64,000 nt of DNA from Norana najaformis (lineage: Eukaryota; Annelida; Clitellata; Crassiclitellata; Hormogastridae), in assembly GCA_964023275.1 (NCBI GenBank), contig OZ029914.1:49182530-49246529 (forward strand), written 5' to 3'. The notes below the pieces were generated by a model that had not been told where the DNA came from, ran no database searches, and saw only the letters and a list, made by a program, of their open reading frames with translations. The translations under genes and the position numbers were made by a program. Below are positions 481 through 57,693 of this stretch, piece after piece; position 1 is the stretch's first letter; each line of letters begins with the position of its first letter.

Positions 481-735
481 TTTAAGGTTGACGAAGCTGT
501 GGCACTACTGGTCTCCCAAATACGTTCAGAAGCATCAAAAAAGTCCTTATTGCTGATGATACATTGCCAATGCATCTACTTCTCAACTTAATATCTACAT
601 GTAACAACCGCTGCACTGTTCATTTGAATGTTGGCGTTATAATGTGCTCATCTTTAACATGTTACTTGTACAAGATACGAAAAAATGCTTATAGAGAAAA
701 TGTATTCCTTTAAAGTATAACTTTTCCTTGCACAG

Positions 736-1119
736 GTATCAGATGGGGCTATGTGTTGACACTGACAATCTTAATAACGCAACATTCGTCAACACTATCT
801 GTACTTGTATCAAAGCCGATGAATACAGTTTCCGTTGTGGGGAACAGAACGAAAATGGAATGCAGTAGAAATGAGTCTATTCTTCCGATTGATTGGGAAT
901 TTGCTTCAACTGGTTCCAATAATTTCACCTATATCTACATTAGTCGACGTATAACGGAAAACCTGTCGTCGAGGTATAGGATAGACACAGACAACAAGAC
1001 AAGATACGATGTCGTTATAGATTCTGTCGATTTGTCTCACGCTGGAACATACAGATGCATTCCTATTACCGAAGAGTTTACAAAAACGTCGTCGCATTCA
1101 GCTCAACTCATTGTTCTAG
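736..1119 (+). CDS. Gene A exon: end of signal sequence plus V-like Ig domain
   Basis: Acceptor CACAG at 731-735, donor GT at 1120. The exon is 384 nt, phase 1 in and out. Canonical V-type features: Cys in KMEC, Trp in IDWEF, then the F-strand block DLSHAGTYRC. It has five N-x-S/T sequons (NRT, NES, NFT, NLS, NKT). There is no in-frame ATG before the hydrophobic stretch, so translation must begin further upstream. The paralogous exon in C (33655-34033) is 5 nt shorter and frameshifted. Confidence 0.75.
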
Positions 1120-55900: not shown

Positions 55901-57357
55901 TTTCTATCTCTAGTCAATAACGTAATAATATATGTATATATATATATGCTTCTGGAATCTCATACAATAAGACTGTAAATAACATGTGCTCCGTTATCTG
56001 ACCAGAATTATCTGCTTATAGTCTATCTGTTGGTATTAAATTATCTTTTATTGATTTGCTTGTTTTCGTGTTTTCATACAGTTTGCAATGATAAGATTAG
56101 GAAACAGTAAATATTAATGTAGTATAAATGATATTTTGCCTTATAATTCTCTAAACGCGAATACTATCTATCATAAGTTATGAAATCAAATTTAACCTTT
56201 TGTGCAGATTCATTAAATTACATTTTTAATTTATTTCTTCTTCAGATCAAAACCAAAAGGAAAAGCAAAGTAATGAAGAAAAAGCAAACAAACCGCTGAT
56301 TCGGGTAAGTTAAAGCTATAAATTAGAAACTTCTAGAGCACTGGTGTCTAATGCACAAGGCATCAACCCATGGCGCATCAAATTTAAGCCGTATTCAGGT
56401 CAATATCCAGAAGATCAGACAAAGAGGCAGCCTATGGCGGATAAGCCAACTGAAGATTTATATATAAGTCCAACATGCAAGTAACGAAAGCAGCAGCAAT
56501 CTGGATCTATGACTCTAGAATGCTACAGGTCTCAAGGAAATAATCTATTTAAGTAAAAGTCAATAGGCCTATTTGTACTCTACTGTTGTTATTCTTCTGC
56601 AAAATTACTTTAAAACTAGAAATGTAACTTAACCTGAACTTTGATCTAAGTTAACTTACTGTTATGTTTCCTTTTCCACTGATAACATAAAACAACGTGC
56701 CAATATCTAGCTTTGAGTCCAGTAGATTGCATGCCATATAGATTATAAGTTTAGGGAAATGGGAAAAGTCTGCTGAAAGAGGTGAGCCATATCTTGATCC
56801 AATGATCGAGATGAGATTGGGTTCTTCCGAAAACAAATGACTTGGGTCAGTGTTTCAAAGTCCGTCAACCAATAACTATGAAAGAATTTTCGGAAGAACC
56901 CAATCTCATCTCGATCATTGGATCAATATATGGCTTACCTCTTTCAGCAGACTTTTCCCATTTCCCTAAACTTATAATCTATATGGCTAAGGAAGAATTT
57001 TTCACAAATGTACAAACGATATATATATATATATATATATATATATATATATATATATATATATATATATATATATATATATATATATATATATATATAT
57101 ATATATATATATATATATATATATATATATATATATATATATATATCTTTCCTGCTCCTCCTTTCTTTTTCTAGATTTTTGCGACATCTTGTGACTGCCA
57201 AAACCATTGAAGTAGACCTAACCTTACCCTGTCAATTTTACCATTCTTCTTATTATGAATAGTGCCAAGAAAACCTTTAACCGTGTGTTTTATATTATTT
57301 CAGCCTGAAGAAAACACACCAGATTCCAATACCAACCCTGCATCAAACGCGATATAA
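52848..57357 (+). CDS. B4: intact two-Ig type I membrane receptor
   Basis: Exons 52848-52955 (ATG 52874), 53297-53617, 54165-54488, 55206-55316, 56246-56304 and 57304-57357. Every junction has AG/GT and the phases agree (1,1,1,1,0). The product is 316 residues: leader of about 27, two Ig domains, one transmembrane segment, and a tail of about 45 residues rich in Lys, Glu, Asn and Gln, without Tyr. With no tail signalling motif it may act as an adhesion, decoy or adaptor-coupled receptor. It is the best-preserved member of the B subfamily. The last intron holds a 101-bp inverted duplication and a 128-bp AT run. An upstream 5' exon is likely because the leader exon follows an acceptor. Confidence 0.75.
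53297..53617 (+). CDS. B4 first Ig exon
   Basis: 321 nt, phase 1-1, TTTCAG acceptor, GTACGT donor. DMACKS, LRWFM and AAQTYICLEPG mark the Ig fold. Differences from B2 are mostly substitutions with no indel, so the frame has been kept. Confidence 0.8.
54165..54488 (+). CDS. B4 second Ig exon
   Basis: 324 nt, phase 1-1. NLTCSVEF, GNWAPTMEW and NYTCTTKF. Sequons NLT and NYT overlap the two core cysteines' strands. Confidence 0.8.
55206..55316 (+). CDS. B4 transmembrane exon
   Basis: 111 nt, phase 1-1, acceptor TTGTAG, donor GTAGGG. The hydrophobic core IAPIVIAAIITLLVVLFI is followed by RKKNAR, a normal stop-transfer signal. Confidence 0.75.
55401..55545 (+). mobile_element. SINE, counterpart of 25438
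   Basis: GCGCCATCGATTGATACTTAGTC and TTAATAAATGCAGAAG match the B2 copy in the same intron. The B box is degenerate (GGGTTATTGAAC). Confidence 0.5.
55546..55700. repeat. (TAC)n/(AAT)n/(CAT)n microsatellite
   Basis: Impure trinucleotide array. A shorter AAT-type tract follows the SINE in B2 (25625-25650), so it grew from the SINE tail. Confidence 0.85.
56246..56304 (+). CDS. B4 cytoplasmic exon 1
   Basis: 59 nt, phase 1 in and 0 out, acceptor CTTCTTCAG, donor GTAAGT. It encodes DQNQKEKQSNEEKANKPLIR. Confidence 0.7.
56733..56987. repeat. 101-bp inverted duplication in B4 last intron
   Basis: Arms 56733-56833 and 56887-56987 are reverse complements with only two mismatches. The loop is 53 bp. 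The corresponding B2 intron (about 27035-27190) has only the left arm and loop, so the right arm is new in B4. Apparent ORFs here are mirror images of each other, not genes. Confidence 0.95.
57019..57146. repeat. (AT)64 microsatellite
   Basis: 128 bp of uninterrupted AT, starting 32 bp after the inverted duplication. It can form a cruciform. Confidence 0.98.
57304..57357 (+). CDS. B4 terminal exon
   Basis: Acceptor TTATTTCAG ends at 57303. It encodes PEENTPDSNTNPASNAI and TAA, phase 0. Confidence 0.7.
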   Translation, partial: PEENTPDSNTNPASNAI

Positions 57358-57693
57358 GACGTGTAGGTGACGATGACAAAAAATTCTACCCATGACAGAA
57401 ACACTACACGTATTTTCAAATGAAAGTAAAAGCGTCACAACACATTTTAACCATAATGGCAATAATATACCCAATACTCACCCCTTGCTCACACGTCAAC
57501 ATACTCTCACCCTGTGTTTTGTAGCTTTTAACTCAAGACGAAAAGACTGAAAAAAGAACTGTTCAAGGTATCCTACACTGCTTCGCTTCCTGTACAATCT
57601 CATTACTTCTCATGACCATTATCGCCAACGATTTCTACTGTCTGCCCGGGCTGACCCCCAGGATTACAAGCTGGAACTGAAACTGACCATTCA

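What the first reader, a model, noticed from the sequence alone, without database searches (positions are those of the whole stretch)
600..57400. An Ig-receptor locus duplicated in tandem, about 27 kb repeated as about 24 kb
Gene order A-B1-B2 is repeated as C-B3-B4. Introns, flanks and SINEs also align (4072 with 34632; 9964 with 42202; 18570 with 52543; 25438 with 55401; 27340 with 57280). A third partial unit appears at 58.5-61 kb. This is active birth-and-death evolution of a receptor family.
Basis: seen in the sequence. Interest (0 to 1): 0.8.

Follow-up and report, generated by a model that had tools for sequence, protein, structure and literature searches.

The report
Patchwork array of immunoglobulin-type receptor genes
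The two repeats in this window are real, and they are two neighbouring units of a 1.6-million-base animal gene array with at least 36 copies of immunoglobulin-type receptor genes, in which pieces of genes appear to have been copied over one another, leaving some copies broken and a few with swapped tails.

Summary
Observation confirmed: 504-27442 repeats collinearly at 33433-57390, and all five coordinate pairs hold. The genes are exon-split Ig receptors. A (three Ig domains, membrane helix, tyrosine-rich tail) and B4 (two Ig domains, helix, short tail) are open; C, B1 and B3 are dead; B2's tail is broken. The third unit is real and runs past the window edge to an open gene, B5. In the held genome (608 Mb, 17 contigs, unnamed) the window lies in a same-strand array, C2:47.69-49.27 Mb, with 19 A-type and 17 B-type heads.

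Interpretation revised: not one clean block duplication. Genome searches from A's 3' flank, B1 and B2's 5' half find the partner unit first. But A's body is nearest to a gene 657 kb away and B4's 3' half to one 230 kb away. So a local duplication was later patched from elsewhere in the array (mechanism inferred). Two B-type heads elsewhere precede A-type tails. Ig domains show no positive selection on average. Immune function is inferred. Such clusters are a known kind; the patchwork and tail exchange are the interesting part.

The parts
504..27442 (+). Unit 1: A - spacer - B1 - repeats - B2
   Evidence: collinear chain
33433..57390 (+). Unit 2: C - spacer - B3 - repeats - B4
   Evidence: collinear chain
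736..1119 (+). Gene A, exon with signal peptide and V-set Ig domain (first exon with start codon not found)
   Evidence: Pfam V-set 1.6e-08; splice sites and phase
1594..1950 (+). Gene A, Ig2 exon
2338..2598 (+). Gene A, Ig3 exon
3208..3318 (+). Gene A, transmembrane exon
   Evidence: hydrophobic stretch read by eye
3748..4022 (+). Gene A, cytoplasmic tail exon with motifs YEMV, YCSL, YSRL, YVN, and stop codon
   Evidence: motifs across nine tails
190..4000 (+). Gene A body: nearest relative genome-wide is C2:48.525 Mb (88-91%); its last part, from about 3538, is 95% to C2:48.540 Mb
4072..5677 (+). 3' flank of A: nearest relative genome-wide is the 3' flank of C (85%)
7141..8373 (+). A-B1 spacer pieces present again at 60288-60898
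9644..9963 (+). B1: dead Ig1 exon (frame-breaking indels, nonsense codon shared with B3); no Ig2 exon found
18899..18977 (+). B2, signal peptide exon
19322..19642 (+). B2, Ig1 exon, open
24091..24414 (+). B2, Ig2 exon, open
25155..25275 (+). B2, transmembrane exon; part repeated at 25283 onward, phase changed; next acceptor reads AA instead of AG
33656..34033 (+). C, Ig1 exon, signal peptide and Ig domain in different frames
34381..34631 (+). C, Ig2 exon cut by a deletion equal to A 1845-4069 (Ig3, transmembrane and tail exons gone)
34632..36249 (+). 3' flank of C
41883..42201 (+). B3: dead Ig1 exon, no Ig2 exon found
52874..52955 (+). B4, signal peptide exon
53297..53617 (+). B4, Ig1 exon (divergent V-set-like)
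54165..54488 (+). B4, Ig2 exon
55206..55316 (+). B4, transmembrane exon
   Evidence: hydrophobic stretch read by eye
56246..56304 (+). B4, cytoplasmic exon 1
57304..57357 (+). B4, last coding exon; tail without tyrosine
54450..55692 (+). B4 3' half: 91-99% per 150-base bin to the gene at C2:49.006 Mb; the stretch 53865-55308 is 74% to B2
58771..60898 (+). Start of a third unit (spacer only); its B gene B5 lies at 66667-68151, outside the window

Best explanation
The window holds two adjacent units, and the start of a third, of a same-strand array of single-pass Ig receptor genes of two classes, A and B. A local duplication made the two units (supported by nearest-relative searches from A's 3' flank, B1 and B2's 5' half). 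Later, non-allelic recombination or gene conversion replaced the body of A and the 3' half of B4 with sequence from the lineage of array members now 657 kb and 230 kb away (the sharp switches of nearest relative are shown; the mechanism is inferred). Deletion, frameshift and nonsense changes killed C, B1 and B3 and broke B2's tail. The same process can put A-type tyrosine tails behind B-type heads. Inferred working: the N-terminal V-type domains bind a surface ligand, and the conserved tail tyrosines recruit SH2 or AP-2 partners, while short-tailed B proteins lack this; together they form a repertoire of cell-surface recognition receptors, most likely immune.
For: Collinear chain. Gene models with consensus splice sites and matching phase for A and B4. 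Relatives of B4 running through Ig1 and Ig2 without introns on 1.4-1.8 kb contigs, 44-53% identity. Array counts. A: 328 informative sites agree with C2:48.525 against 31 with C in 504-1844, then 41 against 194 in 4072-5677; genome-wide ranks agree. B4 intron 3 is 95.0% to C2:49.006 and 76.1% to B2, and B2 ranks fifth among the other loci for 53865-55308. B1/B3 against B2/B4: 143 against 4 and 1 sites. B head, B helix and A tail are open and in phase at C2:48.535-48.540. Tail motifs YEMV and two YxxL are kept in 9 of 9 tails aligned, YVN in 7 of 9.
Against: Only 18 of 19 A heads and 17 of 20 strong B Ig2 places were put in trees, and many deep nodes have support below 60. b49006's 5' half was not fetched. 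The B2-B4 link is not clear-cut in the Ig1 exon: there B0 and others reach 85-87% to B2, against 86.3% for B4, so it rests on the flank and first intron. No expression, ligand or signalling data. Average dN/dS of the Ig exons is below 1, with no sign of an arms race at domain level. Order of A and B heads is not significantly alternating (P = 0.11). The search with the full A protein found nothing.
Confidence: 0.84

Rival explanations
1. One 27-kb block was duplicated once; differences along it come only from uneven constraint and mutation rate.
For: Collinear order. Searches from B1, A's 3' flank and B2's 5' half find the partner unit first.
Against: A's body, introns included, is 87-98% per 250-base bin to C2:48.525, and other loci outrank C there; B4's intron 3 is 95% to C2:49.006. 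Rate differences alone would not make a distant locus the nearest relative.
Confidence: 0.07
2. Two alleles placed in series by the assembler.
For: A pair at C2:49.017 and 49.030 Mb with equal scores in three searches shows that recent or artefactual copies may exist in the array. Published pearl oyster haplotypes differ in regions holding Ig gene clusters (PMC9646362, passages seen).
Against: K2P 0.12-0.56 between the units, private lesions in each, a third unit outside, and at least 36 heads in the array.
Confidence: 0.02
3. The receptors are not immune: they serve adhesion or self-recognition, and the tail YxxL motifs are endocytosis signals.
For: The YxxL form also fits AP-2 signals (recalled). 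Average dN/dS is below 1. No ligand is known.
Against: Large clustered Ig receptor sets of variable copy number are more usual for immune or allorecognition loci (recalled, and PMC2832619 passages). Not tested here.
Confidence: 0.3

Closest known systems
Mammalian CEACAM (CEA) family and other paired receptor clusters (KIR, LILR)
   Same: Clustered Ig receptors, tyrosine tails, gene conversion, and replacement of cytoplasmic exons between members (PMC2832619, passages seen)
   Different: Here there are two distinct head classes, no strict ITIM or ITAM spacing in A's tail, and no shown opposite signalling
Snail polymorphic transmembrane clusters GRC/PTC1 and PTC2 (Biomphalaria), and the single-pass clusters on LG16 and LG5 of B. 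sudanica
   Same: Clusters of single-pass transmembrane genes, probable cell-surface recognition; the B. sudanica clusters hold C-type lectin, fibronectin III and Ig domains (PMC4361660, PMC7494358, PMC10875847, passages seen)
   Different: The GRC and PTC2 passages seen do not describe Ig heads; the B. sudanica genes mix Ig with lectin and fibronectin domains, which the A and B4 models lack. Not compared by sequence
Biomphalaria FREPs and other VIgL
   Same: One or two Ig domains, multigene family (PMC10875847, passages seen)
   Different: FREPs are defined by a fibrinogen domain; the A and B4 models have a transmembrane helix and no such domain
Oyster CgIgIT2
   Same: Molluscan Ig receptor with transmembrane helix and tyrosine signalling motif, acting in haemolymph (PMC11999971, section 15 read)
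   Different: Five Ig domains and a classic ITAM; A has three, and its YxxL pair is 13 residues apart
Clustered Ig genes of pearl oyster scaffold 9
   Same: Ig gene cluster with transmembrane helices in a region that differs between haplotypes (PMC9646362, passages seen)
   Different: Often with fibronectin III domains; not compared by sequence here

Membership tests
Ig superfamily single-pass receptor | Ig domains outside, one transmembrane helix, cytoplasmic tail | tested here: met
   A: V-set, Ig_2 and Ig_3 above cut-off, hydrophobic and tail exons. B4 Ig2 weak (25.2 bits, cut-off 30); B Ig1 only by profile match to A Ig1, probability 31%, E 5e-4. No topology predictor was run
Tandem array under birth and death | Linked copies, with intact and dead members | tested here: met
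Gene conversion or non-allelic recombination among members | Sharp switch of nearest relative along a gene | tested here: met
   no formal recombination test was run
Paired receptors (KIR, LILR, CEACAM type) | Closely similar heads with opposite signalling tails | tested here: inconclusive
   A and B heads share only 33% in Ig2, so A and B are not such a pair; B heads with A tails exist beside B heads with B tails, but signalling is unknown
ITIM-bearing receptor | [ILVST]xYxx[ILV] in the tail | tested here: not met
   A's tail motifs QDYEMV, EGYCSL and AVYSRL lack the required residue at -2 (consensus recalled)
ITAM-bearing receptor | YxxL/I-x(6-12)-YxxL/I | tested here: not met
   In A, YCSL and YSRL are 13 residues apart (consensus recalled)
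FREP / VIgL | Fibrinogen or lectin domain | tested here: not met
   No such domain in the A or B4 models
GRC / PTC2 clusters | Sequence homology to those genes | not tested
   No eukaryote genome library with names was available
Hydractinia Alr | Sequence homology to Alr genes | not tested
   Only listings and passages were seen

The most novel reading that the evidence does not exclude
An invertebrate counterpart of the mammalian leukocyte receptor complex: one array in which two classes of Ig heads and two kinds of tails (tyrosine-rich and short) are exchangeable modules, continually re-paired by gene conversion between members hundreds of kilobases apart, so that signalling output can be reassigned without changing ligand binding.
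Probability: 0.25. Interest if true: 0.8.

Novelty: new member of a known kind. Interest (0 to 1): 0.52.

Why it matters
It gives a chromosome-scale, countable example, in what looks like an invertebrate, of how a receptor repertoire is made: local block duplication, decay, and overwriting from distant array members, with two clearly open genes left in the window out of six heads. The genes with B heads and A tails make it testable whether such animals exchange signalling tails the way CEACAM genes do.

Tried and rejected
Rejected: haplotype series (divergence, private lesions, more units outside); positive selection averaged over Ig domains (2 of 120 Ig1 pairs and 0 of 120 Ig2 pairs with dN > dS among the 16 A-type genes kept; C and a47716 dropped as broken; the B2-B4 transmembrane exon alone gave 1.05, range 0.43-3.67); Rfam RNA genes (none at gathering score); a simple dispersed-repeat reading of the 58.8-60.9 kb piece (it continues into B5 outside the window).

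Led nowhere: structure of B4 Ig1 (mean pLDDT 38.6, not used); structure of A Ig1 (pLDDT 60.7; the fold search listed mostly antibody complexes first, but nothing at or below E 0.001); scans of genome contigs and viral contigs (none confirmed of 9, 24 and 20 pattern matches); naming the animal: a mollusc haemocyanin domain was not found, but no control genome rang either, so this is uninformative. That the sequence looks molluscan is recalled, not shown. Assembly sizes in a Pinna paper, 810 and 760 Mb (PMC13093298, passages), do not match 608 Mb. A0 and A2 had no A-type tail or transmembrane exon found in the stretches scanned.

Full report
1. Observation. A self-comparison of the window shows a chain of 25 direct matches from 504-27442 to 33433-57390; 20 of them have offsets between 29.7 and 35.5 kb. 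With unit 2 reversed, no match remained. The chain aligns 10.6 kb of unit 1 with 10.5 kb of unit 2. The other five pieces (11247-14170) have offsets of 37-39 kb and further partners, and are probably dispersed repeats.

2. Genes. Gene A has five coding exons in one phase with consensus splice sites: signal peptide plus V-set domain, Ig2, Ig3, transmembrane helix, and a tail ending with a stop codon at 4022. Pfam V-set, Ig_2 and Ig_3 are above cut-off. Its first exon with a start codon was not found. B4 has six exons: signal peptide, Ig1, Ig2, transmembrane helix and two short cytoplasmic exons without tyrosine. No Pfam Ig match was found in the Ig1 exons of B2 and B4. A profile comparison with A's V-set aligns 112 columns including the two Ig cysteines and the tryptophan, at probability 31% and E 5e-4. 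Proteins P0008-P0013 on contigs of 1.4-1.8 kb run through Ig1 and Ig2 without an intron, at 44-53% identity, which supports the B4 model; five of the six also go on into a hydrophobic stretch, read by eye, while P0012 ends before it. That these contigs are transcripts is inferred.

3. Dead and damaged copies. C lacks the equivalent of A 1845-4069, with a 2-base match at the junction, so it has no Ig3, membrane helix or tail; its signal peptide and Ig1 are also in different frames. B1 and B3 share the same nonsense codon near the end of Ig1 and have no Ig2 that the searches found, so B1 was dead before it was copied. B2 is open through Ig2 and the helix, but part of its transmembrane exon is repeated, the phase shifts, and the next acceptor reads AA; it could still make a tailless receptor (inference). 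Of six heads in the window two, A and B4, are clearly open.

4. Third unit. Pieces at 60288-60898 follow 7141-8373 in order, and others at 58771-60361 follow 39694-41081. In the fetched flank the series continues: 65369 matches 8735, and 66627 matches 9614, reaching B5, a B1-type gene with open Ig1 and Ig2. No Ig exon was found at 57.4-64 kb; one chance-level hit at 61395 had E 0.06.

5. The array. With A's Ig1, 150 of 551 candidates were scored and all 150 matched; 19 have E below 1e-43, all on the + strand of C2:47.69-49.27 Mb. A's tail gives 22 matches of 29 candidates, all in C2:47.68-49.19 Mb, 18 of them strong, one of these with a stop codon. B4's Ig2 (150 of 444 scored) gives 20 strong places: 17 on C2 on the same strand, two on C8, one on C13. 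B4's Ig1 gives the same split, 17, 2 and 1, among 51 matches of 88 candidates. The 36 heads counted on C2 include broken ones such as C. They do not alternate more than chance (22 of 35 steps, P = 0.11).

6. History. Best genome-wide match by score: B1 to B3 at 80-84% (next B5, 71-78%); the A 3' flank to that of C at 85% (next 81-83%); the B2 5' half to that of B4 at 82% over nearly its full length (others cover less of it, at 68-87%). In the Ig1 exon alone B2 is about as close to B0 and others (85-87%) as to B4 (86.3%). The four-way comparison of B1-B4 gives 143 sites for B1B3|B2B4 against 4 and 1. These support a local duplication. Yet A's body (190-4000) is nearest to C2:48.525 Mb, 88-91% along its length, 87-98% per 250-base bin, and 84-94% in protein by exon (Ig1 84, Ig2 92, Ig3 94, helix 94, tail 88). 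From about 3538 on it is 95% to the tail of the neighbouring gene at C2:48.540 Mb, whose tail is also closer in protein (93%), so the patch itself may be composite. C's nearest are C2:48.309 (83%) and 48.506 (81%). In 504-1844, 328 informative sites join A with C2:48.525 and 31 with C; in 4072-5677 it is 41 against 194. B4 from about 54450 on is 91-99% per bin to C2:49.006, while 53865-55308 as a whole is 74% to B2. The trees of Ig1 and Ig2 give A with C2:48.525 at support 100 in both, and C with C2:48.309/48.506 at 93 (Ig1) and with C2:48.309 at 98 (Ig2); many other nodes are below 60. Eighteen of the 19 A heads and 17 of the 20 strong B Ig2 places were used. The simplest account is duplication followed by overwriting from distant members. 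The high identity of the A and C 3' flanks that first looked odd is then the duplication signal, and A's body is the newcomer. No formal recombination test was run.

7. Tail exchange. Downstream of the B heads at C2:48.340 and 48.538 Mb the fetched sequence shows no A head before an A-type tail exon. At C2:48.535-48.540 the signal peptide, Ig1, Ig2, B-type helix and A-type tail are all open and the exon phases fit; the donor after the signal peptide reads GC rather than GT. The A-type 3' flank follows in both cases. The gene at C2:48.340 is similar, with a weaker helix match (41%, E 8e-6) and an unchecked splice there. The tyrosine motifs YEMV and two YxxL are kept in 9 of 9 tails aligned, YVN in 7 of 9; nine is what was aligned, of 18 strong tail places.

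8. Selection. Between A and C and between B2 and B4, dN/dS of the Ig exons is 0.41-0.58, bootstrap ranges 0.22-1.21; the B2-B4 transmembrane exon gives 1.05. Between A and C2:48.525 the five exons give 0.29-0.78. Among 16 A-type genes the mean over pairs is 0.58 (Ig1) and 0.54 (Ig2), with 2 and 0 of 120 pairs above 1. Site-level tests were not run.

9. Function. Membrane-anchored Ig receptors with conserved tail tyrosines fit signalling or endocytosis. Strict ITIM and ITAM forms are not met in A. Immune use is the commonest role of such arrays (recalled), but is not shown. CEACAM genes show the same two processes, gene conversion and replacement of cytoplasmic exons (PMC2832619, passages). Snail and oyster clusters of transmembrane or Ig genes are the nearest invertebrate parallels (PMC4361660, PMC7494358, PMC10875847, PMC9646362, passages; PMC11999971, passages and one section).

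10. Novelty. As a tandem Ig-receptor array it is a new member of a known kind. I did not see this array described in the listings of nine text searches, but the species is unknown and the library is partial, so this says little.

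Noticed in passing
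G000 C2:0.2-5.2, 37-44 and 47.7-50.3 Mb; C4:28.6-29.05 Mb; C11:2.16-2.36 Mb: About 130 weaker Ig exon matches in each of two capped lists, in clusters outside and around the array
   Followed up: no
G000 C2:49016.7-49019.6 and 49030.2-49033.1 kb: Tandem copies 13.46 kb apart with equal scores in three searches: recent duplication or assembly artefact
   Followed up: no
G000 C8:12.087 and 12.124 Mb; C13:4.086 Mb: B-type genes off the array
   Followed up: no
window -18643 to -12979 (A0) and 86679 to 90159 (A2): A-type heads with a very different Ig3 (46-47%) and no A-type tail found; how they are anchored is unknown
   Followed up: partly
44197-45081: Tc1-like transposase reading frame, Pfam HTH_Tnp_Tc3_2 and DDE_3; no match to it in unit 1
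   Followed up: partly
17515-17943 and 20258-21976: Retroelement-like reading frames: the first has a sub-threshold reverse transcriptase match; the second has no Pfam match in the part tested and is so called by eye; it lies in B2's second intron, flanking parts of which are also in B0
   Followed up: partly
window 100427-100449 (right flank): A run of 23 N, the only one in the 164 kb examined
   Followed up: no
P0009: A B4 relative from a transcript-like contig with another tyrosine-bearing tail, unlike its short-tailed relatives
   Followed up: no
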